The notes under the pieces were generated by a model, which did no database searches, was not told the DNA's origin, and was given only the letters and a program-made list of their open reading frames with translations. Positions 1 to 33,947 of a stretch of DNA of 34,329 bases are shown here, in pieces (the stretch's first letter is position 1; the number at the start of each line of letters is the position of its first letter). Source of the stretch: a virus; IMG/VR virus record IMGVR_UViG_3300033149_004062, positions 1 through 34,329 of that record, one strand, 5' to 3'. The translations under genes were made by a program, and so were the position numbers.

Positions 1-312
1 TCCGTTCGGACAGGTGGCGAGCACAAGCGATTGAGGGTAGAGCGCAGGTAGATGTCGGCACTGGTGTCCGTTCGGACAGGTGGCGAGCACAAGCGATTGA
101 GGGTAGAGCGCAGGGACAACGGCAAGGGGCTCACCGACGCCCTGGGTGGCGAGCACAAGCGATTGAGGGTAGAGCGCAGGCCTTCCCCGCGCTGGCCAAT
201 GACGCATCTCGGTGGCGAGCACAAGCGACTGAGGGTAGAGCGCAGGGGTCATGACCGGTCATGGTCGACAAATGGGGATGGCGAGCACAAGCGATTGACG
301 GTAGAGCGCAGG
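1..312 (+). CRISPR. CRISPR array, leader-distal end (5 repeats, 4 full spacers)
   Basis: Five 36-bp repeats, each starting GGTGGCGAGCAC and ending AGAGCGCAGG, lie at 13-48, 79-114, 145-180, 211-246 and 277-312. They are separated by four spacers of exactly 30 bp (49-78, 115-144, 181-210, 247-276). Bases 1-12 are the end of a further spacer, so the array continues beyond the left edge. The first three repeats are identical, the fourth has one change (229) and the fifth two (278, 299). This decay is typical of the leader-distal end, so the leader should lie to the left. The 36/30 geometry fits type II arrays but does not exclude others. No cas gene is in the window. Spacer 2 matches the capsid gene at 18386-18415. 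Confidence 0.96.
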
Positions 313-334
313 CAGAATGACGTGCCACGGCGGA

Positions 335-622
335 AAAGCGTGGCAAACCGGGCCGGAAACGGGGAGCTGCCGCAAGGTTGGCCGTAACTCGGGACTCGGA
401 TTCGCGTTACGACGGCTTCTGAGCCTCGGTCCCTTGTTTCGACGGTTGCGAGCGGCTGTGCGGTGCGAAAACGGGCGGCAAGTCCCGCAACTCGAATGTG
501 CTTGCCGCGCGGACAGTTGGGCTTCTCGTCGTCTCGTGGCCCGCGAAAAAAAAGCGCGGCAGACCGGGCAGGAAGCGCGGGGCGCTTGCAAGGCTAGCGG
601 TAAGCCGGGACGCGGACTGGCG
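335..622. repeat. Diverged ~72-bp direct repeat flanking the anti-repeat
   Basis: Bases 335-406 and 551-622 align without gaps over about 72 bp at a 216-bp offset, with roughly three quarters of positions identical; both copies begin AAAGCG and contain ACCGGGC, GCAAGG and CGGGAC blocks. The copies bracket the putative anti-repeat. An open frame spans both, but its composition is low-complexity and Arg-rich, so I do not call it a gene. The rest of 313-670 contains a 7-bp inverted repeat (TGCCACG 323-329 / CGTGGCA 339-345) and no convincing gene. Confidence 0.6.
484..509 (+). ncRNA. Putative tracrRNA anti-repeat
   Basis: This stretch is an inverted, diverged copy of the CRISPR repeat. Paired with repeat bases 1-25 it gives 12 contiguous pairs (repeat 2-13, two of them G-U), a 2x2 internal loop, then three 3-bp blocks (CGA, TTG, GGG) separated by a bulge and a mismatch. 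Pairing with the 5' half of the repeat is what a type II tracrRNA does when the array is transcribed on the + strand. Downstream, a CCGCG/CGCGG hairpin around an A-run (about 542-559) and a perfect 7-bp hairpin (642-660) could belong to the tail. No U-rich terminator is visible, so the RNA ends are unknown. A degenerate inverted repeat with no RNA function is the alternative. Confidence 0.5.
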
Positions 623-2526: not shown

Positions 2527-2823
2527 ATGATCGACCGCGATACGGCGCAAAAAGTTCTCGACCTCAAGGCCCGAGGCGCATCGAGCCGGGCGATCGCCAG
2601 GGAACTGAGAGTCGCGCGCGGGACGGTGATGGCGATTTGCCGCGGCACCTGGGCCGGATTCCGACGGCCGCCCCGCGAAGCGGCGGAAGAGCCGGAGCGC
2701 ATCGAGGAGCACTGCGAGCGTGGCCGCTGTGTCGAGTGCGGCGCGCTTTTGGACGTTCGGCCGTGCCGGGCGTGCCGCGTCCTGCGGAGAATCCAAGCGA
2801 GAAAGACAGGAGTTGAGACATGA
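2527..2823 (+). CDS. Helix-turn-helix plus zinc-ribbon protein
   Basis: The 98-residue product has an N-terminal helix-turn-helix of the resolvase/Hin or transposase type (residues 1-40: a DLKARGASSRAIARELRVA segment followed by the recognition helix RGTVMAICRG). It ends in a Cys cluster (CVECGALL then CRACRVL, about 72-90) that fits a zinc ribbon. The ATG at 2527 follows a G-run 6 bp upstream; the frame is open further upstream but that part overlaps the structured leader and is unlikely to be translated. The stop overlaps the next start (ATGA at 2820). It could be a DNA-binding regulator of the following operon; function unproven. Confidence 0.75.
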   Translation: MIDRDTAQKVLDLKARGASSRAIARELRVARGTVMAICRGTWAGFRRPPREAAEEPERIEEHCERGRCVECGALLDVRPCRACRVLRRIQARKTGVET

Positions 2824-3206
2824 TCCTTAGGAACGAACTTTACGAGCAGATCAAGGAGGCCGTCCAGGCGCTCAAGGCGGGTTTCCGCGACGCCCTGGCC
2901 GACGGCAAGATCACGCTGGCCGAGCTGTGGCTCTTGGTCCAACATCTGGTGATCGATCTGGTAGGCATCGTCAACGGACTCGATGACCTGAGTCCGGAGC
3001 GCCGCAAGGAGGCCATTCTTGAGCTGGTAGACGAGGTCTACGCCGACGTGATCGCACCGATCGACCTGCCGTGGGTACCGGAGTTTATCGAACGATCCCT
3101 CGTTGATCCGATCCTCGGGATCGCCCTGCACGAGGTCGTTTCGCGTCTGCTGGACCAGTACGGTGGCGGGCAAGACGGGAAACTTAACGCGAAAAGCAAA
3201 GCATGA
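2820..3206 (+). CDS. Hypothetical helical protein
   Basis: This is a 128-residue, largely helical, acidic protein. A central hydrophobic stretch (about 38-58: LAELWLLVQHLVIDLVGIVN) could be an amphipathic or membrane-associated helix, and the C-terminal half (about 85-118) has a PWVPEFIERSLVDPILGI segment. It is coupled at both ends (ATGA overlaps at 2820 and 3203) to the HTH gene and a membrane protein gene. The position between a regulator and a membrane protein/protease pair would fit a lysis or envelope module, but I cannot assign a holin. Confidence 0.65.
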   Translation: MILRNELYEQIKEAVQALKAGFRDALADGKITLAELWLLVQHLVIDLVGIVNGLDDLSPERRKEAILELVDEVYADVIAPIDLPWVPEFIERSLVDPILGIALHEVVSRLLDQYGGGQDGKLNAKSKA

Positions 3207-4093
3207 TGTGGGGACCAACAGAAAACGAATGGCGAGCTCTCTTTTGGGGTCTTCTGCTGACAGGGTTGATTGTCGGGGTGGGCCTGACCCTGCTGGTCAG
3301 CCGGTGTGTGGGGGCGGAAATCGTCGGACCTGAAACCGTCGAACCCGGTGCGCCCGCCTGGTACGCGGTCGCGGACGCGCCGGCCGGCTCGAGCGCTGTC
3401 TTTTTGCCGAGTCTCGAGTTGGAGGCGGGCCCGCCGCACCTGCTTGACGGGCACGCGCTTTTCTGGACACGTACGCCGGGCCGGTACGTAATCCACGCAA
3501 TCGTGGTCGACTGGGACGCGAAGCGGATCGTGCCCCTGGCCCAATCCATCGTGGTCGGTCCGGAGCCGGGCCCCGATCCTAATCCGGAGCCCGACCCGAA
3601 CCCTGATCCTGATCCCATCCCTCCGGTCGTCCAGTTTCTCTGGTCATTTATCGTCGAGGAGTCGAGCGAGCGTACGGCAGCGACCGCGGCTATCATGACC
3701 TCGCCGGAAGTTCGCAGCCTCTTCAGGCCTGAGCATTTCCGCGTTGTCGATCAAGACAACCGGACGAACAAGGCCTTGGCCGAATGGATCGACAAAGTGC
3801 CGAACGGAAGCGCTCTGCCTTACTGGTTTTTGACTACCGAAACAGGCAGGATCGTCCATCAAGGATCTTTGCCGCAGTCGGTTGACGACGTGGTCGCCGT
3901 CGTCAAGAAGTACTTGCCGAAGGAGCAAGACAAGAGGAGCGCGCCGGGGAAGCGAAAAACGGCTCGATCCACGTCGCGATTACCACCCATGATGTATGAG
4001 TACGTGCCGTCGGTGCAGTCCATGCCGAGCTATTCGGGGTGGGGTCCCGGTGGGTATTGTTGCCCCGCTGGCCAGTGTGAGGGATTTTGGTGA
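3203..4093 (+). CDS. Membrane-anchored protein with Pro-rich linker and thioredoxin-like domain
   Basis: The 296-residue protein has an N-terminal membrane anchor (about 11-36, ALFWGLLLTGLIVGVGLTLL), an Ig-like beta domain (about 40-118), a spacer of alternating Pro and Asp/Asn (PDPNPEPDPNPDPDP, about 122-140), and an alpha/beta domain (about 145-235) resembling a thioredoxin fold but without a CXXC active site. A short Gly/Tyr/Cys-rich end (CCPAGQC) follows. The stop TGA shares one base with the ATG of the papain-like protease gene. The architecture suggests an envelope-anchored protein displaying a domain away from the membrane; the role is unknown. Confidence 0.65.
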   Translation: MMWGPTENEWRALFWGLLLTGLIVGVGLTLLVSRCVGAEIVGPETVEPGAPAWYAVADAPAGSSAVFLPSLELEAGPPHLLDGHALFWTRTPGRYVIHAIVVDWDAKRIVPLAQSIVVGPEPGPDPNPEPDPNPDPDPIPPVVQFLWSFIVEESSERTAATAAIMTSPEVRSLFRPEHFRVVDQDNRTNKALAEWIDKVPNGSALPYWFLTTETGRIVHQGSLPQSVDDVVAVVKKYLPKEQDKRSAPGKRKTARSTSRLPPMMYEYVPSVQSMPSYSGWGPGGYCCPAGQCEGFW

Positions 4094-4809
4094 TGCCGAA
4101 CTACGCTGTGCCCGATTGGGTTAAGCCGGGCTGTCTTCCGAGAAAGACGCAGTTCGGGAAACTCAAGGGCGTTCCCGCCTTTCGGGAATCCATCGAAGTC
4201 ATTCCCAAAAAGGACTGGCCCGAGCTCATCCCGAAACAACCGGGGATACGGTTTTGTGTTCCGGAGCCGGAAGGCGTTTACAATCAGGGACAAGTCGGAT
4301 CCTGCGCTTGCGAGTCGGGGAGCCAAGCCCTGTCGATCGTCCGCGTATTCTGCGGGCAACCATGGCTGCTGTTCAATCCGTACGGCATCTACGGGCGCGT
4401 CAACGGCGGTGTCGACGCCGGCTCGTCACTCGACGACGTGGCCGCATTCCTGCGCAAGTACGGTGCGTTCCCGGAGTCCGTCTGGCCTCGGTCGAAAGGT
4501 TGGCGCGCCGAGCCGACGGACGAGGCCTACGAAGCGGCGTACTCCTACCGATTGTTGGAGAGCTACGACATCGGCTCGGCGGAAGAGGCCGTAACGGCAC
4601 TGCTGCTTGGAATGCCGGTGCACTACGGCAGCAACGGTCACGCGAAGTGCTTTGTCCGCGTGCTCACGCCGGAGAAGGGGTTGTACGTCAACTCGTGGGG
4701 CAGCGACTGGGGCGACGGCGGCTTCGGTACGGAGCGCTTTGCGAACATCTGGTGGCAGTACGGCGCGTTCGCGTACCGAACAGCGGTCGATACAGGCAGG
4801 ATCTCTTGA
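4093..4809 (+). CDS. Papain-like (C1A) cysteine peptidase
   Basis: The product is about 238 residues. The papain-family core is recognisable in order: an oxyanion-hole Gln and catalytic Cys in QGQVGSCACES (Cys about residue 71), a catalytic His in NGHAKCFV (about 183), and the Asn motif VNSWGSDWGDGGFG (Asn about 200), close to the classic NSWG..WG..G. All three catalytic residues are present. There is no clear signal peptide or propeptide. The ATG at 4093 overlaps the preceding TGA. In phages the family is uncommon; it could act in lysis, virion maturation or host-protein cleavage. The neighbouring membrane-anchored gene hints at an envelope role. The fold is well supported, the role is not. 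Confidence 0.85.
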   Translation: MPNYAVPDWVKPGCLPRKTQFGKLKGVPAFRESIEVIPKKDWPELIPKQPGIRFCVPEPEGVYNQGQVGSCACESGSQALSIVRVFCGQPWLLFNPYGIYGRVNGGVDAGSSLDDVAAFLRKYGAFPESVWPRSKGWRAEPTDEAYEAAYSYRLLESYDIGSAEEAVTALLLGMPVHYGSNGHAKCFVRVLTPEKGLYVNSWGSDWGDGGFGTERFANIWWQYGAFAYRTAVDTGRIS

Positions 4810-15053: not shown

Positions 15054-16508
15054 ATGGCCCAACGGAACGGTCACACCGCGATTCTCGGCCCGAACGGCCG
15101 ACCGTACCGTTTCGACTATGACGCCGTCGAGGACAAGAAACGCCGCCGGCCACCGCGGGTGCGCCTCCTGTCGGAGGACAAGCACCTGGCCGAGGGCGAC
15201 CGCAAAAAGCTGGTGGCCACGGCGCGCGATGTCGTCCGCAATTGGACCATAGCCGCATGGATGGTCCGCAAGCATCTGGACTACGTGGCTACATTCGGGT
15301 TCCAGGCGCGGACCGCGGACGAAGCGTTCAACGGCCGGCTGGAAGACCTTGTACGATCGTGGAGCCGCAAGGCGAATTTCGACGTGGCTGGCCGGCACAG
15401 CTTGGGCCGCTATCTACGGCTGGCCGAGGCCCGGCGCACGCTGGACGGCGACTTCGGCACGTTGAAGCTCTCCAGCGGGCGCGTGCAGGCCATCGAAGGA
15501 GATCGTATCCGCACGCCGCGCTCGGGGCTGCCGAAGGGCGTCGATCCCGATGACGTGGTGCACGGCGTGATCCTCACCAAAGCAGGCGCCGCGCGCGGGT
15601 ATTGCCTCCACAAGCGGGGCAAACTAGGTGACGGGTTCGAGTTCGAGCGGATCGTCCCCGCGCGGCATTTCTTAATGACGGGCTATTACGATCGGTTCGA
15701 CCAGGTGCGCGGAATCTCGCCGCTCGCCTCGGCAATCAATACGCTCCAAGACGCGTACGAAGGGCTTAGTTACGCGGCCTGCAAGGCGAAGGTCGCTCAA
15801 ATGTTCGGCCTCGTCACCAAGTTCGGCAGCGAGGAAGAGGAGTCGATGGGGGAGGTGACGACGGAGACGGACGATGCAGGAAACATGCTGAAAAACCGGA
15901 CCGTCGTGGACTTCACGCGGGCGCCCGTGCAGCTGGACCTTGATCCCGAAGATTCGGTGGAACTCCTGGAGAGCAATCACCCGCCGACGCAGCTGCTGGA
16001 GTTCATCAAGCTGTTAATCATGTTGACACTCAAGGCGGTGGATATACCCTATTCCTGGTTTGACCAGAAGTCCGCGACGTGGTCCGCCGGCCGCACCGAC
16101 TGGGTCCTTTACGATGCCTCGGCCGAGTCGCGCCGCGCCGACAACGCGGAGTTCCTCAACGCGCTGCTCGCTTGGCGCATCGTCTTGTGGCTGCTGGACG
16201 CCGAGCTGCAGCTGCCGAAGTCCATGGCGCTGGAAGAGGTCCGTTGGGAATGGATCCCGCGAAAGATGGCCTGGGTCGACCCGGCCAAGGAGGCTGTCGG
16301 GTGGGAGAAGGCCCTTCAGAATAAACTGACCAGCCGATCGCGCATCTGCAAGTCCCAAGGGAACGATTTCTACGAAATCGCCGACGAGTTGGCGGCCGAG
16401 GAAGCATATCTGGCCGGCCAACAACCACCAAACGGCAAAACCAGGCCGCCGGCCAAACAGACGCAATACGTCGCGTCGCTCAAGGACTATCTGGGGATCG
16501 CGATATGA
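15054..16508 (+). CDS. Portal protein (lambda gpB-like family)
   Basis: The 484-residue protein has the typical portal layout: a basic N-terminal region, an alpha/beta wing with FLMTGYYDRFDQVRGISPLA (about 203-222) and SAINTLQDAYEGLSYAACKA, the long stem helix region near LLEFIKLLIMLTLKAVDIP (about 312-330) and a Trp/Asp-rich domain (WFDQKSATWSAGRTDW). GISPLASAINTLQDAYE is a strong match to lambda-type portal proteins. The portal forms the dodecameric DNA channel at one capsid vertex and binds TerL. It overlaps the next gene by ATGA. Confidence 0.9.
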   Translation: MAQRNGHTAILGPNGRPYRFDYDAVEDKKRRRPPRVRLLSEDKHLAEGDRKKLVATARDVVRNWTIAAWMVRKHLDYVATFGFQARTADEAFNGRLEDLVRSWSRKANFDVAGRHSLGRYLRLAEARRTLDGDFGTLKLSSGRVQAIEGDRIRTPRSGLPKGVDPDDVVHGVILTKAGAARGYCLHKRGKLGDGFEFERIVPARHFLMTGYYDRFDQVRGISPLASAINTLQDAYEGLSYAACKAKVAQMFGLVTKFGSEEEESMGEVTTETDDAGNMLKNRTVVDFTRAPVQLDLDPEDSVELLESNHPPTQLLEFIKLLIMLTLKAVDIPYSWFDQKSATWSAGRTDWVLYDASAESRRADNAEFLNALLAWRIVLWLLDAELQLPKSMALEEVRWEWIPRKMAWVDPAKEAVGWEKALQNKLTSRSRICKSQGNDFYEIADELAAEEAYLAGQQPPNGKTRPPAKQTQYVASLKDYLGIAI

Positions 16509-17692: not shown

Positions 17693-18628
17693 ATGTCCGC
17701 TCCGACGCTATTGGACGTGATCAAGCGCAACGGGACCGACGCGGCGGTCGGCTTGATCGAGGAAGCCTCGAAGGCGACCCCCGAGGTGGCGCTTGGCGCC
17801 GCCCGCACCATCCGCGGGCTGAACTATAAGACGCGCGTCAGGACCGGCTTGCCGACGGTCGGATTTCGGCAAGTCAACCAGGGTACGGCCGTCTCGAAAT
17901 CCACGATCGAGCAACGGCTCATCGAGTGCTACTTACTCAATCCCCAATTTGAAGTAGACAAAGCCGCCGCTGATGCAGCCGAAGACGGCGCTGCCGCTTA
18001 CTTGGCGGAGGAATCGCTTGGCGTCACGCAGGCGGCTTTTCAGGCGCTCGGCATTTCATTTTTCTACGGAGCTCACTCGTCGTTTGGGAAAAGCGATGCT
18101 TTTCCGGGACTCCTCCAATGCTACAAGAGTGACGAGATGGTCGTGGACGCCGGCGGAACGACCGCCAACACGGCATCGAGCGTCTGGCTTGTCCGGTGGG
18201 GCATTCAGGACGTGAAGTGGGTACTCGGCGAGGGCGGCCGGGCCGAGGTCACCGACCCGATCGAGGTCCGGCTGACAGATGACAACGGAAATCCGTACAC
18301 CGGCTATCGGCAAGAGCTCTATCTCCGGCCGGGTCTCCAGGTGGGATCGATCTACTCGGTGTGCCGGATCAAGAAGCTCACCGAGGACAGCGGCAAGGGG
18401 CTCACCGACGCCCTGATCGACAAGGCGATGGAAAAGTTCCCCGCCGGCCGGCCTCCCACGGCCTGTTACATGACGCGGCGCAGCCGGCGGCAATGGAAAA
18501 ACAGCCGGACCGCTACGACGCCGACCGGCGCGCCCGCGCCGTGGCCCGACACGATCGACGGCCCGGAAGGCCAGATCCCGGTCTACACGACTGACTCGAT
18601 CTCGAACGTCGAGACCCTGACGCTCTAA
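17693..18628 (+). CDS. Major capsid protein
   Basis: The 311-residue protein follows the protease-scaffold gene and has a strong ribosome-binding site (AGAGGAG). It contains a segment typical of phage major capsid proteins: RGLNYKTRVRTGLPTVGFR (about 41-59) and SKSTIEQRLIECYLLNPQF, then a P-domain-like central region and a C-terminal beta region (GQIPVYTTDSI). It assembles the capsid shell. Codons 232-241 (DSGKGLTDAL) form the 30-bp protospacer matched by spacer 2 of the array at 1-312, with one mismatch that changes Ser233 to Asn in the spacer's version. Confidence 0.88.
   Translation: MSAPTLLDVIKRNGTDAAVGLIEEASKATPEVALGAARTIRGLNYKTRVRTGLPTVGFRQVNQGTAVSKSTIEQRLIECYLLNPQFEVDKAAADAAEDGAAAYLAEESLGVTQAAFQALGISFFYGAHSSFGKSDAFPGLLQCYKSDEMVVDAGGTTANTASSVWLVRWGIQDVKWVLGEGGRAEVTDPIEVRLTDDNGNPYTGYRQELYLRPGLQVGSIYSVCRIKKLTEDSGKGLTDALIDKAMEKFPAGRPPTACYMTRRSRRQWKNSRTATTPTGAPAPWPDTIDGPEGQIPVYTTDSISNVETLTL
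18386..18415 (+). other. Protospacer matched by CRISPR spacer 2 (29/30)
   Basis: These 30 bp equal spacer 115-144 except at the fifth base (G here, A in the spacer). The match is in the same orientation as the coding strand and in phase with the capsid codons. The bases following the match begin ATCGACAAGG and the bases before it end CACCGAG; one of these flanks should contain the PAM. Confidence 0.95.
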
Positions 18629-25724: not shown

Positions 25725-27671
25725 ATGGGCGAACTCCGAAAGGCGAAACGCGGCGAGCCTTTTCGGCCATCGGTCGCATGGCAGAACGCTACGATCGACG
25801 CGATCCGCTACGTGCGCGAGCTGCAATCATCCGGAGGTCAGAGCGTTGGGCACTCAGCTAGGCAAGCCGACATTGTGTTCATCAAGAACACGACGGGCTT
25901 GGCCCTCTGTCGTCACAGCGTCGTCGGCACTGAGAAAGCGTGGCCAACTCCGAACGACAATCTGAATCAGTTCCAGAATCTGCCGCTCCTGCACGGTGTC
26001 GTCCCGCAGCGACCGCGACATCTCGGCCGCTATGCGGTTCTCTTGGAGCCGGCCGAGCCCGATGCGATTGTGCCGGCCGTCCTGGACGGAGTGACCGTCG
26101 CGCGGCTTGCCGTTAATCATCCATGCGATGGGTTCGCCGATATCATCGACGGCGATCCCTGGAGACTCTATACCCGCTCCCAGCCGGACCAGGGCAGCGC
26201 CGTCATCCTGTGGAAGGAGAGTGGCGTCGGGCTGAAATGGGGCGTCGTGCGGATCGCGCATTCCCCGGGCGGCCTTTGCACGACGACGACCTGCCCTCCG
26301 TGTGCTGGCCAATGCCGGTGGCAATGCACCGCCTCGGGCTGGGCCAAAGTCATCGACACGTGCGAAGGCGATTGCACGTGCGTCTCGCCTCAACAATGGT
26401 GCCTCCCGACGAACTACGGCGCCATGGCCGACGGCCAGTGTTGCGCCGGGACGACCACCACGACGACAACGACTTGCGAGCCGTGCGAAGGCGGCTGCAT
26501 CTGGGAATGCCGGCCGGGAGGCTGGGCGATCGACCGGTTCTATTGCGCAAGCGAGGACTGCTACTGTCAGACGCCGGCGGAGGCATGCGCCGAAAGCAAC
26601 TACTGGGCGCTGACGGGCTCGGGCTGTTGCGGTGGATCGACGACCACGAGCACCACGACGACGCCGGCTCCGTGTGCTGGCCAGTGCTGCTACATCTGCA
26701 CGCCCTGCGGCTGGGTCCACCTGGCCGGCGAATGCACGGGCGAGGGATGCGACTGCCAACCGGACGACGAGGACTGCATCGAGGGCGAGTACAGCACGGT
26801 CACGGCGATCCAGTGCACCTCGACCACGACGACCGAACCTCCGACCACCACTTCGACGACGGGAGAGCCCACCACGACGACGACCTGCGAGCCGTGCGTT
26901 GGGGGGGCGGATTCCTGCGCCTGGATGTGCACGCCGGACGGCTGGGTCTTGGATACCGACGCTTGCCCGACCGGGTGCTACTGCAACGAGCCGACCTTCC
27001 CGTGCTACCCCAGCGGGATCGGATCGCTCTACTTGACCGACTGCTGTTCGAGCGGACCAACGACCACCACCAGCGCGCCGGACTGCGAAGAGAACCCCGG
27101 CTGTCTCTGGGAGTGTAGTTGCCAGTACGGCAATTGCGACTGGGTCCACACCCCGAACACGTTCTGGACGTGCCGCGACATCGGGTGTTGCTGTGATGCC
27201 CCGGGCCCCGACCACGTCTGCGATTGGGTCGCCTATATAATGGGTGATTACGTAGTGACCGAGTGCCAGGGGTGCGGCAGCACAACGACGAGTACAACGG
27301 GCGAGCCGACAACGACCACAAGCGGCGAGCCTACGACGACAACGACATGTCCGCCGTGTGATCCGGCCGGCCGATGTGTCTATCAATGTCACAACCTGTC
27401 GTGGCGGATCTACTATTCGGACTGTATCGGCGACGGATGCGCATGTCAGCCGCCAAGCAGCGAGTGTACCTGGACCAAGGAATATCAGTTTGAAGAGGGA
27501 ACCTGCTGCGGCCCAACGACCACAAGTACGACCGAAGCGCCGACGAGTTCGACTACCAGTTCGACTACGACTACCAGTTCGACTACGACTACCAGTTCGA
27601 CTACGACTACCAGTTCCCCTTCGACTACCAGTTCGACTACCAGCAGCACGACCAGTACGAGTCCTCCTTGA
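25725..27671 (+). CDS. Mucin-like tail fibre: six Cys-rich modules with Thr-rich linkers
   Basis: The 648-residue protein has an N-terminal tail-attachment region (about 1-183). Six homologous Cys-rich modules of about 50-70 residues follow, starting near 184, 250, 315, 387, 452 and 541. Each has the order C.PC.G.C...C, a G/S-W pair, a GC.C..P segment, a C and a terminal CC. They are joined by runs of Thr, Ser, Pro, Gly and Glu (for example TTTTTTTT and TTTSTTGEPTTTTT), and the C terminus is a Ser/Thr tail of about 40 residues. The composition is that of mucin-type O-glycosylated stalks. The even spacing suggests disulfide-linked beads on a flexible rod that could reach the host surface. The neighbouring gene after the next one encodes a GalNAc-transferase-like enzyme. 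Confidence 0.88.
   Translation: MGELRKAKRGEPFRPSVAWQNATIDAIRYVRELQSSGGQSVGHSARQADIVFIKNTTGLALCRHSVVGTEKAWPTPNDNLNQFQNLPLLHGVVPQRPRHLGRYAVLLEPAEPDAIVPAVLDGVTVARLAVNHPCDGFADIIDGDPWRLYTRSQPDQGSAVILWKESGVGLKWGVVRIAHSPGGLCTTTTCPPCAGQCRWQCTASGWAKVIDTCEGDCTCVSPQQWCLPTNYGAMADGQCCAGTTTTTTTTCEPCEGGCIWECRPGGWAIDRFYCASEDCYCQTPAEACAESNYWALTGSGCCGGSTTTSTTTTPAPCAGQCCYICTPCGWVHLAGECTGEGCDCQPDDEDCIEGEYSTVTAIQCTSTTTTEPPTTTSTTGEPTTTTTCEPCVGGADSCAWMCTPDGWVLDTDACPTGCYCNEPTFPCYPSGIGSLYLTDCCSSGPTTTTSAPDCEENPGCLWECSCQYGNCDWVHTPNTFWTCRDIGCCCDAPGPDHVCDWVAYIMGDYVVTECQGCGSTTTSTTGEPTTTTSGEPTTTTTCPPCDPAGRCVYQCHNLSWRIYYSDCIGDGCACQPPSSECTWTKEYQFEEGTCCGPTTTSTTEAPTSSTTSSTTTTSSTTTTSSTTTTSSPSTTSSTTSSTTSTSPP
27545..27660. repeat. 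18-bp tandem repeat coding the Ser/Thr tail
   Basis: The 18-bp unit TTCGACTACGACTACCAG, encoding STTTTS, is repeated about three times exactly and then degenerates into 9-bp variants of the same (TTCGACTACCAG). This allows slipped-strand length variation of the fibre tail without breaking the frame because the unit is a multiple of three. Confidence 0.85.
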
Positions 27672-28779: not shown

Positions 28780-30657
28780 ATGATCGAACTCACGATCGGC
28801 ATGGCCACATACGACGATGTCGATGGCGTCTACTTCACGGTCCAGGCCCTTCGGATGTACCACCACGAGGCCCTGCGCCGCTGCGAGCTGGTTGTCGTAG
28901 ACAACAACCCTGATTCGCCGCACGGGCAGATGGTGCGAGGGCTGATCGAGAACTGGGTCGCTGGCCAGGACAGGGCACGCTATATCCCGCAACCTGAACC
29001 AGTCGGCACCTCGGCCTCTCGCGATCGCGTGTTCCAAGAGGCCGCCGGCGACGCCGTGATGTGCACCGACTCGCACGTGCTCTTCGCGCCCGGAAGTATC
29101 GATCGATTGCTGGAGTTCTACGACGACAACCCCGATTGCCTCGACCTGCTCTCCGGTCCCATGTACTGTGATAATCTCGCGAGCGTCCACACCCATTTTG
29201 ACGACGTATGGCGCGCCGAAATGTGGGGAATTTGGGGCCATGACGCGCGTGGGGACGATCCGGACGCCGAGCCCTTCGAGATTCCGGCGATGGGCCTCGG
29301 GCTGTTTACGTGCCGAAAGGACGCCTGGCTTGGGTTCCATCCCCACGCCCGCGGCTTCGGAGGCGAGGAATTCTACATCCACACGAAGTTCCGGCAAGCC
29401 GGCCGCAAATGCCTCTGCTTGCCGTTTCTGCGGTGGGCACATCGGTTCGGTCGGCCGAACGGCGTTCCCTATCCGTTGACTCAATGGAACAAGGTCCGAA
29501 ACTACGTGCTGGAGCATCAGGAGCTCGGCCTGCCGCTGGATCGGATTTACCGGCATTTTGTGACCCTCGATCCGGAGACGCTGCCGGATGGCACGCTCGC
29601 GGAACCCGCTGTGAATGCGATGAACCAGCATCACTGGGATTACCTCGTGGCCGATCCCGTCACCCGAACCGCACCGCCGCCGGCGCTGGCCCCGCCCAGC
29701 AATCCGAACCCCGCTGGCTGCGGAGGATGTGGAGGCAATCAGCGACCTGCCGTGTCGGCCAGGTCCGCCAATTCGCATCCCACCGACCTGGAGACGCTGT
29801 ATCGCCGGGCCGTCGAACAGCCCAGCGACATCAATGAGCACGTGCCCAAGCTCCGGGAGCTCGCAAGTCAGTGCGAGCACGTCACCGAGTTTGGCAAGCG
29901 GCGGGGCGTGTCGACCGTCGGCCTCTTGGCCGGCCAGCCGAAGCAGCTCGTTACCTATGACCTGGTGCCCGATCGGATTGACGCCGTGCTGACGAAGTGC
30001 CGTGGCGAGACCCAATTCACGTTTCGCCGCCAAGACGTGTTGGAGGCCGAGATCGACTCCACGGACATGCTGTTCATCGACACTAAGCACACGGCCGGAC
30101 AACTCGCCGCCGAGTTGGCCCGCCACGCGGAAAAGGTCCGTCGATGGATCGTGCTGCACGACACCACGATCTTCGGCTTCCGCGGCGAGGACGGCGGGCC
30201 GGGCCTCCTGGTCGCCCTGCGCCGGTATCTCCGCGAGCATCCCGAATGGTCGGTCATCTACCACGTCACCAACAATCACGGGCTCACGGTGATAAGCCGC
30301 GCCGCCGAAGACAAACCCAAACCGCCCGGTCCCGTCGAGCTGGCGGCGAACTTCGGCCGAGCCCTGGCTGAGCACGTCCGCAAAGGCGCCCGAGAAGCGA
30401 GCCGGGAGCTCTTGCAGGCCCGGCTCGAGGCCTGCACGCTTTGCGACCAGCGGACCGGCGAACGTTGTAGCGTTTGCGGCTGTCCGATCGTGGCCAAGGC
30501 CAGCTGGCGCGAGCAGGATTGCGACCTGGCCCGCTGGCCGGAGCCCGAGACAATCGGGGATCACGATACGGATCAGAAAAAGAGATCGTGGCTCAAACGG
30601 ATCGTGCCCAACTGGGCCGGCCGGATGCGAGACGCAAATGCACCAAAGCAGCCTTGA
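28780..30657 (+). CDS. Trimodular enzyme: GalNAc-transferase-like GT, methyltransferase/CmcI-like, zinc ribbon
   Basis: The 625-residue protein has three parts. First, a GT-A domain (1-270): LTIGMATYDDVDGVYFTV start, the metal-binding D-x-H in CTDSHVLFAPGS (about 97-100) and GGEEFYIHTKFRQAG (about 194-208), then LRWAHRFG. This is the DxH ... GGE ... H order of polypeptide GalNAc-transferases (GT27 class). Second, after a Pro/Gly/Cys linker (about 300-325), a CmcI- or SAM-methyltransferase-like domain (about 345-510) with RRGVSTVGLLAG, MLFIDTKHTAGQL and WIVLHDTTIFGFRGEDGG. Third, a C-terminal Cys4 ribbon (about 550-590; CTLCDQRTGERCSVCGC). It starts 22 bp after the fibre gene. It probably glycosylates and possibly methylates virion or host targets; the adjacent Thr-rich fibre is the likeliest acceptor by inference. 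Confidence 0.82.
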   Translation: MIELTIGMATYDDVDGVYFTVQALRMYHHEALRRCELVVVDNNPDSPHGQMVRGLIENWVAGQDRARYIPQPEPVGTSASRDRVFQEAAGDAVMCTDSHVLFAPGSIDRLLEFYDDNPDCLDLLSGPMYCDNLASVHTHFDDVWRAEMWGIWGHDARGDDPDAEPFEIPAMGLGLFTCRKDAWLGFHPHARGFGGEEFYIHTKFRQAGRKCLCLPFLRWAHRFGRPNGVPYPLTQWNKVRNYVLEHQELGLPLDRIYRHFVTLDPETLPDGTLAEPAVNAMNQHHWDYLVADPVTRTAPPPALAPPSNPNPAGCGGCGGNQRPAVSARSANSHPTDLETLYRRAVEQPSDINEHVPKLRELASQCEHVTEFGKRRGVSTVGLLAGQPKQLVTYDLVPDRIDAVLTKCRGETQFTFRRQDVLEAEIDSTDMLFIDTKHTAGQLAAELARHAEKVRRWIVLHDTTIFGFRGEDGGPGLLVALRRYLREHPEWSVIYHVTNNHGLTVISRAAEDKPKPPGPVELAANFGRALAEHVRKGAREASRELLQARLEACTLCDQRTGERCSVCGCPIVAKASWREQDCDLARWPEPETIGDHDTDQKKRSWLKRIVPNWAGRMRDANAPKQP

Positions 30658-30793
30658 TGAAATGCGGCGTATCCTCGACCGCTGTTTGCCGGACGGGATG
30701 CGATTCTTGTTGGAAACCGCCGGGTTGTGCGTGCTCTCGACCTGGCTGAACGAGAACGACTGCTGGGGCATCGGGAGAAAGCCGGCGTGGTGA
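30638..30793 (+). CDS. Short coupled ORF (51 residues)
   Basis: An ATG at 30638 opens a 51-residue frame beginning MHQSSLDEMRRILDRCLPDG and ending WGIGRKPAW, overlapping the previous gene by 20 bp and joined to the next by GTGA (GTG 30790, TGA 30791-30793). The mix of Leu, Asp and Arg in its first 35 residues looks like an amphipathic helical peptide. The two-sided overlap suggests it is translated and couples the two glycosyltransferase genes. No family is recognised. Confidence 0.55.
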   Translation: MHQSSLDEMRRILDRCLPDGMRFLLETAGLCVLSTWLNENDCWGIGRKPAW

Positions 30794-31521
30794 CCGTGGC
30801 TTGCCTGTGTCCGACCTATCGCCGGCCGGCGCGGCTGGTGGCCAACGCCATTGCGTGCTTCCAGGCGCAGACCTACTCGGAGGACTGCCGTCGGCTCATT
30901 GTCCTCGACGACGCCGGTGAGCTTTCGCCGCGTTCGGGCCCGGGCTGGGAAATCGTCAGCGTCCAAAATCGCTACCCGACGCTGCCGGCCAAGTATAACG
31001 CGCTGGCCAAACTGGCTGCCGGTGCAGACGCTTTCGTGGTCTGGGAAGATGACGACATCTATCTGCCCTGGCACGTCGAGGCCCACGCCGCGGCGCTGGC
31101 AAATGCCCCCTGGAGCCATCCATCGCGCGTCTGGAGCCTCTACCGCGGCCTTCACGAAGAACTCGCCGGCGGTCGTTTTCATGCTGCCTTGGCCTTTCGC
31201 CGCGAGGCCCTCGAGGAAGTCGGGGGCTGGCCCAACACATCGCGCGGTGACTTCGACCAGCAGCTCATGGCCGTCTTCTCCCGGCGCTTCGGCACGCCCG
31301 CCGATCCATGCGACGGCTATGCCCCGAGCTACCTATTCCGCTGGGGATCGACCGGCAGCTATCACGGCCAGGCTTTCATGGCCGGCCGCGGCGCCGATGG
31401 CGACTGGTACGGCAAAATGCCCGACCGGATCGAACCACGAGGGGGCGACATCGCTATCAGGCCCAAGCTGGACGAAGAGACCGAAGCGATTTTCAAGGTC
31501 GCCGCGTCTTTCGGCGCTTGA
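30790..31521 (+). CDS. Family 2 (GT-A) glycosyltransferase
   Basis: The 243-residue protein starts at GTG 30790 with VTVACLCPTYRRPARLV, the classic opening of GT2-type enzymes (CPTYRRP). It has LIVLDDAG, the catalytic metal motif VVWEDDDIYLPWH (about 95-107), FRREALEEVGGWP, and a downstream RWGSTGSYHG segment. It is probably cytoplasmic, as no membrane helix is seen. The GTG abuts the small ORF stop through a GTGA overlap; a start at GTG 30727 is possible but would overlap that small ORF. It is the last + strand phage gene, and its end overlaps the convergent SHD1 gene by 29 bp. Confidence 0.85.
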   Translation: MTVACLCPTYRRPARLVANAIACFQAQTYSEDCRRLIVLDDAGELSPRSGPGWEIVSVQNRYPTLPAKYNALAKLAAGADAFVVWEDDDIYLPWHVEAHAAALANAPWSHPSRVWSLYRGLHEELAGGRFHAALAFRREALEEVGGWPNTSRGDFDQQLMAVFSRRFGTPADPCDGYAPSYLFRWGSTGSYHGQAFMAGRGADGDWYGKMPDRIEPRGGDIAIRPKLDEETEAIFKVAASFGA

Positions 31522-32146
31522 ATTCCTGAGCGAGCCACGCTTGGTCGGCCTCGCTCAGCCGCTCTTTGGCGACAACTACGTTGGTCCCGTCTCGCTTGCG
31601 CAACCTGACCTGGCCCATTGTCAGACTGACCAACTCGGCCTCGACCTCGAATTTGCCGCTGGCGTCTCTCCAGATCCGGAACTCTGATACGCCAACGGCT
31701 GGAGCCTCTGCCGGTGCCGGCTCCGGGCTCATGCCTTCGCCGCCCGGTTCCGCGTCCTCAACTGGCCCGCTTTTTTCGACGAAAGCCTGCTGTTGTTCTA
31801 CCGCCGGCTCCATGCCTTTCTTGACGGCCAAGTCGGTCTCTATTGCGTCTGAGACTTCAGGCTCGGAGTCGACCGGAACATCAAGAGGGTCCGCCGACGG
31901 CTCACTTTCATCAAACCCGGTCGCGTCCGTGGCCTCTTCGCGCGGCTGCATTTGCTCGTGGGCGAGCCTCGCGCGCTCGGCGGCCTCCCTCGCCTGATGG
32001 GCTGCGGGAATCAGCATGGCACAACTGCCCACCCCTAACAGGCAACCGCCGACGATCACGGTGGGGATCAAAGCCAACGCCAGGCAAATCCCCAACACAA
32101 GGCCACAGCCGCCACCAAAACCCCTTTGGAAACTGGACTCAGCCAT
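31493..32146 (-). CDS. SHD1-domain membrane protein
   Basis: The 217-residue protein starts at the ATG whose first base is 32146, with GGAGGG about 9 bp upstream (an ATG 15 bp earlier is possible). It has one N-terminal transmembrane helix (about 10-45, CGLVLGICLALALIPTVIVGG), a short charged helix, an acidic Pro/Glu-rich linker, and a C-terminal SHD1 (Sla1 homology) domain (about 150-215: FRIWRDASGKFEVEAELVS and LRKRDGTNVVVAKERLSEAD). SHD1-domain proteins are abundant in planctomycetes. It is convergent with the preceding glycosyltransferase gene, overlapping by 29 bp, which argues that either this gene is phage-borne cargo or the phage end lies within this junction. Confidence 0.85.
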   Translation of the reverse strand: MAESSFQRGFGGGCGLVLGICLALALIPTVIVGGCLLGVGSCAMLIPAAHQAREAAERARLAHEQMQPREEATDATGFDESEPSADPLDVPVDSEPEVSDAIETDLAVKKGMEPAVEQQQAFVEKSGPVEDAEPGGEGMSPEPAPAEAPAVGVSEFRIWRDASGKFEVEAELVSLTMGQVRLRKRDGTNVVVAKERLSEADQAWLAQEFKRRKTRRP

Positions 32147-32438
32147 GGAAAGGCCCTCCATTCTGGGGCGGCCGCGACCGGCCGGAACGGAGGAGAACAG
32201 CCGGCCCGGCCGCCGGTTTTGGATCCAGACCCAGGATATCCCCGATCAAACAGCCGATCAAGCGAGCAGATTCAGATTCTGAGCCTCTGAGCGTCGAGCC
32301 TGATCGCCTCGATTGGCCGATTCCGACAATCCGATCACCCTGCCCTCGCGTGCGATTCTGCGGCAGCTAGGGCCGTTTTTACGGCCTATATGAACAATCC
32401 GATCACGCCTCCAGGAAACGGCCGATCGGACGCATCCT

Positions 32439-32521
32439 GCACCCCTACCCCGACGCAATTCCAGATTTTGAGACAAGATTCTCAGTCCGAAGACAGGGGT
32501 TCGACTCCCCTAGGGGGTGCT
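32439..32521 (+). other. tRNA-3'-end-like sequence (possible attachment site)
   Basis: The segment ends with a canonical T-arm: AGGGG (32495-32499), loop TTCGACT (32500-32506) and CCCCT (32507-32511). The end GGGGTGC (32514-32520) can pair with GCACCCC (32439-32445), enclosing about 82 nt, the size of a Leu/Ser-type tRNA. The T-arm and this acceptor helix are out of register by 2 nt, and no D-arm or anticodon arm is convincing, so it is not an intact tRNA. A tRNA 3' fragment left by phage integration is a natural explanation. No second copy is present in the window. Confidence 0.4.
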
Positions 32522-33086: not shown

Positions 33087-33260
33087 CTTAGAGGGTGTTT
33101 GAGAAGGGCGTGTTGCCGCCATGATGCTCTGCCAAAACGGGTGCCATGGCCACGCTTGCGTGGCCATGAATGCAGTGCTTTTCCCCGTTTGGCGCATGCC
33201 CACGACAAGCGTGGGCATGGCACCCAATGAGCGTTTGAGCCTTCTTAAACACGCTCTTAG
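33087..33260. mobile_element. MITE-like element with imperfect terminal inverted repeats
   Basis: Ends 33087-33107 and the reverse complement of 33240-33260 share 18 of 21 bases (CTTAGAGGGTGTTTGAGAAGG versus CTAAGAGCGTGTTTAAGAAGG type ends). Inside are two strong palindromes: GCCATGGCCACGC/GCGTGGCCATG (about 33143-33169) and CATGCCCACG/CGTGGGCATGGC (about 33196-33221). No transposase is present. The 174-bp size, terminal repeats and palindromic interior are typical of non-autonomous IS-derived elements; I recall similar palindromes as frequent in planctomycete genomes. No clear target-site duplication was identified. Confidence 0.62.
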
Positions 33261-33497: not shown

Positions 33498-33947
33498 ATG
33501 AGTCAAGAGACCGTGGGCAGACCCATGGAAATCCTCCTGGTTGAAGACAACCTTGAAGATGCCGGTGCGACGATCCAAGCTCTCAAGCAGGGGAACGTGC
33601 AATGCCGGGTGAGCCTGGTTCGGGACGGCGAGGAAGCGACCGTGTTTTTACGCCGGGAGCACGTGTTCACCAAGGCACCGCGTCCCGACTTGATTCTGCT
33701 GGACATGCAGTTGCCCAAGAAAGACGGCCGAGAGGTGTTGACGGAAATCCGCGCAGACCATGAATTGAAGAACATTCCGGTCGTCGTCCTCACCGGCTCT
33801 TTGGTGCACAAAGCGGTGCTCGAGGGTCAAGGGCTCCACGTGGACGGCTACATGACGAAGCCAGTCAGCCTGGAGCAGTTCATTGACGTGGTCAAGTCGC
33901 TCCGTCGAGCCTGGCTGGCCGAGGTGATCCTGCCGGAGATGGATTGA
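33498..33947 (+). CDS. Single-domain response regulator (CheY/Rcp-like)
   Basis: The 149-residue protein is a receiver domain: MEILLVEDNLEDAG (acidic pocket about 17-18), phosphoacceptor Asp in LILLDMQLPKKDG (about 70), Thr in VVVLTGS (about 99) and Lys in YMTKPVS (about 122). No output domain follows, so it signals by protein contact, as Rcp1-type regulators of phytochrome-like kinases do. The ATG at 33498 has AGAGGAGG 6 bp upstream, and a second ATG lies at 33525. No partner kinase is in the window. It is probably a host gene. Confidence 0.92.
   Translation: MSQETVGRPMEILLVEDNLEDAGATIQALKQGNVQCRVSLVRDGEEATVFLRREHVFTKAPRPDLILLDMQLPKKDGREVLTEIRADHELKNIPVVVLTGSLVHKAVLEGQGLHVDGYMTKPVSLEQFIDVVKSLRRAWLAEVILPEMD

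What the first reader, a model, noticed from the sequence alone, without database searches (positions are those of the whole stretch)
1..312. CRISPR array next to the phage carries a spacer against the phage's own major capsid gene
Spacer 2 (115-144) and 18386-18415 agree at 29 of 30 bases. The one difference, at spacer base 5, changes capsid codon 233 from Ser (AGC) to Asn (AAC), so the spacer was probably taken from a sister phage rather than this copy. Coexistence of a near-perfect target with the array implies one of: the mismatch or a missing PAM prevents cutting, the CRISPR system is inactive, an anti-CRISPR is present, or the array is itself phage cargo used against competing relatives, as reported for mini-arrays on some viruses. 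The adjacency of array and phage makes the last option worth testing.
Basis: partly seen in the sequence, partly recalled or inferred. Interest (0 to 1): 0.88.

Follow-up and report, generated by a model that had tools for sequence, protein, structure and literature searches.

The report
Capsid-targeting CRISPR array in planctomycete prophage
A virus integrated in a planctomycete bacterium appears to carry its own CRISPR array, one of whose guides matches the shell-protein gene of related viruses (and, with one letter changed, its own), which fits a weapon that one virus uses to keep rivals out of the cell it lives in.

Summary
Positions 13-312 hold five 36-nt repeats with four 30-nt spacers. 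Spacer 2 (115-144) matches this phage's major capsid gene (18386-18415) at 29 of 30 bases; the mismatch is codon 233, Ser instead of Asn. New findings: (1) The right end carries a junction, 32477-32520: the displaced 3' 44 nt of a planctomycete tRNA-Glu(CTC), followed by host-like DNA. The matching left junction and the integrase are not in the window, so the element should extend leftward past the array. The array is therefore most likely inside the prophage. (2) The target is the third most conserved of 302 ten-codon windows in the capsid gene. Two distant capsid genes (42% protein identity) also match at 29/30, while close sisters have 3-8 mismatches, so the donor was a related capsid gene but not necessarily a sister. 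(3) The repeat is in no collection searched. Its 36+30 geometry equals that of planctomycete Cas9 arrays, but its sequence does not. Cas genes, type, leader and PAM are off the contig or unknown. Best reading: a phage-borne array used against competing relatives, as reported for SPV1/SPV2, cyanophage N-1 and C. difficile prophages. A new member of a known kind.

The parts
1..12 (.). 3' end of a further spacer, cut by the contig end; identical to the last 12 nt of spacer 1
   Evidence: 1-48 is 100% identical to 67-114
13..312 (.). CRISPR array: repeats 13-48, 79-114, 145-180, 211-246, 277-312 (GGTGGCGAGCACAAGCGATTGAGGGTAGAGCGCAGG); spacers 49-78, 115-144, 181-210, 247-276
   Evidence: the repeat finder and pattern search; 36-nt repeat, 30-nt spacers, the last two repeats degenerate
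115..144 (+). Spacer 2, the capsid-matching spacer GACAACGGCAAGGGGCTCACCGACGCCCTG
18386..18415 (+). Near-perfect protospacer in the phage's own capsid gene, 1 mismatch (codon 233 AGC versus AAC)
   Evidence: third of 302 most conserved ten-codon windows of the gene
17693..18628 (+). Major capsid protein (GP7 family)
   Evidence: PF20911, E 1.9e-28; nine close viral relatives
32477..32520 (+). Probable attR: displaced 3' 44 nt of tRNA-Glu(CTC), phage DNA on its left and host-like DNA on its right
   Evidence: 3' end found, mostly once per genome, in 82 of 119 genomes of a planctomycete family
32326..32406 (+). Two exact copies of ACAATCCGATCAC (32326-32338, 32394-32406) just left of the junction; possible integrase arm-type sites (inference)
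2820..4809 (+). Small gene, secreted-protein gene and putative papain-like peptidase upstream of the terminase; phage module
   Evidence: homologues sit together upstream of terminase and portal genes in planctomycete loci L158 and L160, and with tail genes in L162
5501..7744 (+). Terminase large subunit
   Evidence: PF20454, E 3.4e-18
15054..16508 (+). Portal protein, lambda family
   Evidence: PF05136, E 3.3e-33
33498..33947 (+). CheY-like response regulator, host-like flank right of the junction
   Evidence: PF00072; 57-65% identity to planctomycete genomes

Best explanation
A temperate phage of a planctomycete, integrated at the 3' end of tRNA-Glu(CTC), carries a CRISPR array between its off-contig left end and its lysis/terminase genes. 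Transcribed spacers are processed and loaded into a CRISPR effector, either the host's or one encoded in the unsequenced left part of the prophage. Spacer 2 aims that effector at the most conserved part of the capsid gene of related phages, so a lysogen or infected cell excludes competitors. The prophage's own copy differs by one base, which together with the unknown PAM context would spare it. Shown: the array, the 29/30 match, its conserved target, the probable attR. Inferred: that the array is inside the element (about 0.8), that it is expressed and functional, and that the purpose is inter-phage exclusion.
For: Array and match. Displaced tRNA-Glu 3' end at 32477-32520 with unrelated DNA to its left and a CheY gene and a host-type repeat to its right. 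No second copy of that sequence, no intact tRNA-Glu and no integrase found in the window, so the left junction should be beyond the array. In the same family other tRNA-Glu(CTC) genes carry a tyrosine recombinase gene downstream (L100, L106 and probably L110 by Pfam), so the site is a used integration site. The genes from 2820 rightward are phage genes by co-occurrence with terminase, portal and tail genes elsewhere. Precedents: in SPV1/SPV2 the virus carrying a spacer has a point mutation or deletion at its own copy of the target (PMC6858448); cyanophage N-1 carries five repeats and four spacers without cas genes (PMC4916379).
Against: The left junction is inferred from absence. Genes 671-2110 were not matched to any specific phage family (only a generic HTH match), and 313-670 matches nothing. 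In two planctomycete loci with the same lysis-terminase order (L158, L160) a host-type RNA-binding protein gene lies only about 1.7-2 kb upstream, so a border close to the array is conceivable. Only one of four spacers has a target. No cas gene, leader or promoter was seen. The repeat was not found in any viral or planctomycete genome searched, whereas viral mini-arrays carry repeats identical to those of the host (PMC11656645).
Confidence: 0.55

Rival explanations
1. The array belongs to the host chromosome and the prophage happened to insert beside its trailer end. Spacer 2 is ordinary host immunity against the capsid gene of this phage group, and the prophage survives by mismatch, PAM change, an anti-CRISPR or an inactive system.
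For: Cas9 is common in the class (29 of 298 genomes) and its arrays have the same 36+30 geometry. In L158 and L160 a host-type gene lies about 1.7-2 kb upstream of the equivalent phage module. Degenerate trailer repeats face the phage.
Against: No attachment-site copy or tRNA between array and phage genes. The repeat resembles none of the 15 nearby Cas9-array repeats convincingly (best 17/36, shuffle p about 0.01 in 15 tests) and is absent from 119 genomes of the likely host family.
Confidence: 0.22
2. The prophage carries a complete CRISPR-Cas system, of type II or V judging by the long weakly structured repeat and 30-nt spacers, whose effector and leader lie just left of the contig start.
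For: Leader end points off the contig; repeat is not host-like and folds no better than shuffles; the space between the array and the left junction is unread.
Against: No cas gene or tracrRNA anti-repeat in the window. A phage of this size with a full system would be unusual (PMC11656645).
Confidence: 0.15
3. Assembly chimera: the array end of a host contig was joined to the phage.
For: The contig starts in a 48-nt exact duplication, a repeat-rich place; 313-670 matches nothing.
Against: The contig end falls in the array, but the join to the phage at 313-670 is non-repetitive except for one 80%-identical pair of about 75 nt; G+C is even across the left end.
Confidence: 0.06
4. The match reflects only strong conservation of the capsid motif and carries no special link between this array and this phage group.
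For: The site is third of 302 windows in conservation and two distant capsids match equally.
Against: All wobble positions agree with this phage, while eight relatives have 22-28 of 30 bases identical to it; even so the spacer must come from some capsid gene of this type.
Confidence: 0.1

Closest known systems
SPV1/SPV2 virus-borne mini-CRISPR arrays (Medvedeva et al. 2019, PMC6858448)
   Same: Array in a viral genome, spacer against close relatives, own copy of the target differs by point mutation, no cas genes seen
   Different: Here a bacterial integrated tailed phage, at least four spacers instead of one or two, repeat not matched to a host, no leader seen, single mismatch only
Cyanophage N-1 CRISPR array (PMC4916379)
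   Same: Tailed phage; five repeats, four spacers, no cas genes found
   Different: N-1's repeat is host-like and the array was shown to be transcribed, with a leader; its spacers had no known targets, whereas one spacer here has a target
C. difficile prophage CRISPR arrays (as described in PMC4916379)
   Same: Arrays inside prophages with spacers against other phages of the same host
   Different: Those lie in the structural module and resemble the host's arrays; here the array is near the left end and its repeat is unknown
Planctomycete type II Cas9 arrays (loci L116-L137)
   Same: 36-nt repeats and 30-nt spacers
   Different: Their repeats begin G(T/C)TG and end ACACT or nearly so; this repeat does not

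Membership tests
Phage-borne CRISPR array | Direct repeats separated by unique spacers of uniform length | tested here: met
Phage-borne CRISPR array | Lies inside a viral genome or prophage | tested here: inconclusive
   Right junction found, left junction and integrase missing from the window, so inside by inference
Phage-borne CRISPR array | At least one spacer targets related viruses | tested here: met
   Spacer 2: 29/30 to own capsid gene and to two distant capsid genes; 3-8 mismatches in sisters; spacers 1, 3, 4 no target
Phage-borne CRISPR array | Own copy of the target altered | tested here: met
   One mismatch, codon 233; whether it protects is untested
Viral mini-CRISPR array (strict sense) | Only one or two spacers | tested here: not met
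   Four full spacers and part of a fifth
Viral mini-CRISPR array (strict sense) | Repeat identical to that of the host's CRISPR system | tested here: inconclusive
   No match in 119 genomes of the likely host family or in 392 of the phylum, nor exact in the genome-contig collection; the true host is not held
Type II-C CRISPR | 36-nt repeat, 30-nt spacers | tested here: met
Type II-C CRISPR | Repeat like those beside planctomycete cas9 | tested here: not met
Type II-C CRISPR | cas9 and tracrRNA nearby | tested here: inconclusive
   None in the window; left side unread

The most novel reading that the evidence does not exclude
A planctomycete prophage carries a CRISPR system of its own, with a repeat not seen in the collections searched and an effector lying just off the contig, that polices the capsid gene of its own phage group while sparing itself by a single base.
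Probability: 0.15. Interest if true: 0.72.

Novelty: new member of a known kind. Interest (0 to 1): 0.5.

Why it matters
Phage-borne arrays are described in several hosts, but cases where a spacer from a prophage array can be tied to a named gene of its own phage group are few. Here the target is the capsid gene at its most conserved stretch, where escape should be costly, and the carrier differs from the spacer by one codon. That makes a clean test of whether one base is enough to separate self from rival. It would also extend virus-against-virus CRISPR use to Planctomycetota; I found no paper on this in the one library search made for it.

Tried and rejected
Repeat searched exactly in viral contigs and genome contigs, and with up to 3 mismatches in 392 phylum and 119 family genomes: nothing but one chance 22-mer. 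Array against plasmids, array plus flank against phages: nothing. Cores of spacers 1, 3 and 4 in viral contigs: only chance 18-mer hits with 6 or more mismatches over 30 nt. tracrRNA anti-repeat in the window: no better than shuffled repeats. Rfam: nothing. Deriving a PAM: not possible, the only protospacers are orthologues of one coding site (flanks CTCACCGAG|ATCGACAAGG and CTGACCGCC|CTGGCCTCGG). crRNA direction from degenerate end repeats of planctomycete Cas9 arrays: inconclusive. Filing it as a strict mini-array rejected: too many spacers. Filing it as type II-C rejected: repeat sequence differs. Looking for the host flank with the SHD1 protein: no match.

Full report
OBSERVATION. The window is an IMG/VR virus record. 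Its left end holds five 36-nt repeats at exact 66-nt spacing and four 30-nt spacers. Repeats 4 and 5 carry one and two changes, so the old (trailer) end is at the right and the leader end lies off the contig. The first 12 nt equal the 3' end of spacer 1, so the contig breaks inside a duplicated spacer-repeat unit or an assembly loop. Spacer 2 matches 18386-18415 at 29 of 30 bases; no match with up to 3 mismatches is expected by chance. The ORF is a GP7-type major capsid gene.

THE TARGET. Nine viral contigs encode capsids 73-85% identical. At the target the sisters differ from the spacer by 3-8 bases. Two distant capsids, L005 and L006 (about 42% identity), differ by one base only, and carry the spacer's Asn codon. 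The peptide GKGLTD is invariant across all nine aligned capsids, and the site ranks third of 302 ten-codon windows in nucleotide conservation, overlapping the top one. So the spacer comes from a capsid gene of this type; that it came from a sister is plausible but not shown. The other three spacers have no target in IMG/VR with 18-mer cores.

HOST AND BORDERS. The right end holds a CheY gene 57-65% identical to planctomycete genomes, and an inverted-repeat element similar to one in planctomycete locus L134. Position 32477-32520 is the 3' 44 nt of tRNA-Glu(CTC): the pattern occurs in 82 of 119 genomes of one planctomycete family, mostly once per genome, and ARAGORN calls the full gene in the four loci tested. 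Sequence left of 32477 is not tRNA. This is the form of a displaced 3' end at the far side of an element that integrated in the tRNA gene. The near side, with the intact tRNA, should lie at the element's other end. No such sequence is anywhere else in the window, ARAGORN finds no tRNA, and I found no integrase. In the same family three of the twenty tRNA-Glu(CTC) loci read have a tyrosine-recombinase gene downstream by Pfam. Hence the element should extend leftward beyond the array and the array should be inside it. Were the contig instead a free phage, with 32477-32520 as its attP, the array would still be phage DNA.

THE LEFT MODULE. Genes 2820-4809 have homologues placed together upstream of terminase and portal genes in L158 and L160, and near tail genes in L162, so they are phage genes. 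L162's contig has integrases beyond the peptidase, on the side away from the tail genes. Caution: in L158 and L160 an RNA-binding-protein gene of host type lies about 1.7-2 kb upstream and no integrase is near, so the phage module can begin close to where the array lies here. Genes 671-2110 found no relatives, apart from a generic HTH match.

TYPE. The repeat is absent from everything searched. Cas9 is in 29 of 298 genomes of the class, with 36-nt repeats and 30-nt spacers, the same geometry, but different repeat sequence. The repeat folds no better than shuffles. Types II and V are both possible. No cas gene was recognised among the window proteins tested.

MECHANISM. Most likely the array supplies guides to an effector of the host or of the unread left part of the prophage, and blocks related phages at the capsid gene. 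In SPV1/SPV2 the carrier's own copy of the target bears a point mutation or deletion (PMC6858448); cyanophage N-1 has five repeats and four spacers without cas (PMC4916379); the 2024 review treats viral arrays against relatives as an established class (PMC11656645). Base 5 would sit in the seed only if the crRNA is read from the minus strand with a 3' PAM, or from the plus strand with a 5' PAM; this rests on general knowledge of types II and V and was not tested here.

VERDICT. Real, and most likely phage cargo, but the decisive left junction is not in the window. New member of the known class of phage-borne CRISPR arrays.

Noticed in passing
window 334-409 and 549-623: Two imperfect (about 80%) direct copies of a roughly 75-nt element between array and first phage gene; no match elsewhere in fetched loci.
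   Followed up: partly
L158 (G221), L160 (G464): Two planctomycete genomes hold the same lysis-terminase-portal cluster next to the same RNA-binding-protein gene, with no integrase near; possibly a vertically inherited phage remnant or gene-transfer-agent-like cluster.
   Followed up: partly
window 25725-27671: Large protein of repeated Cys-rich modules joined by Thr runs, ending in a tandem Thr/Ser repeat; tail-fibre or adhesin-like by position.
   Followed up: no
window 28780-31521: Glycosyltransferase-like genes (28780-30657 with Pfam Glycos_transf_2) at the end of the phage late region.
   Followed up: no
window 31493-32161, minus strand: SHD1-domain protein gene just inside the right junction, opposite in direction to the phage genes; not found in 119 genomes of the likely host family at E 1e-20.
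   Followed up: partly
window 33138-33230: Inverted-repeat element (GTGCCATGGCCACGC...) similar to one in planctomycete locus L134.
   Followed up: no
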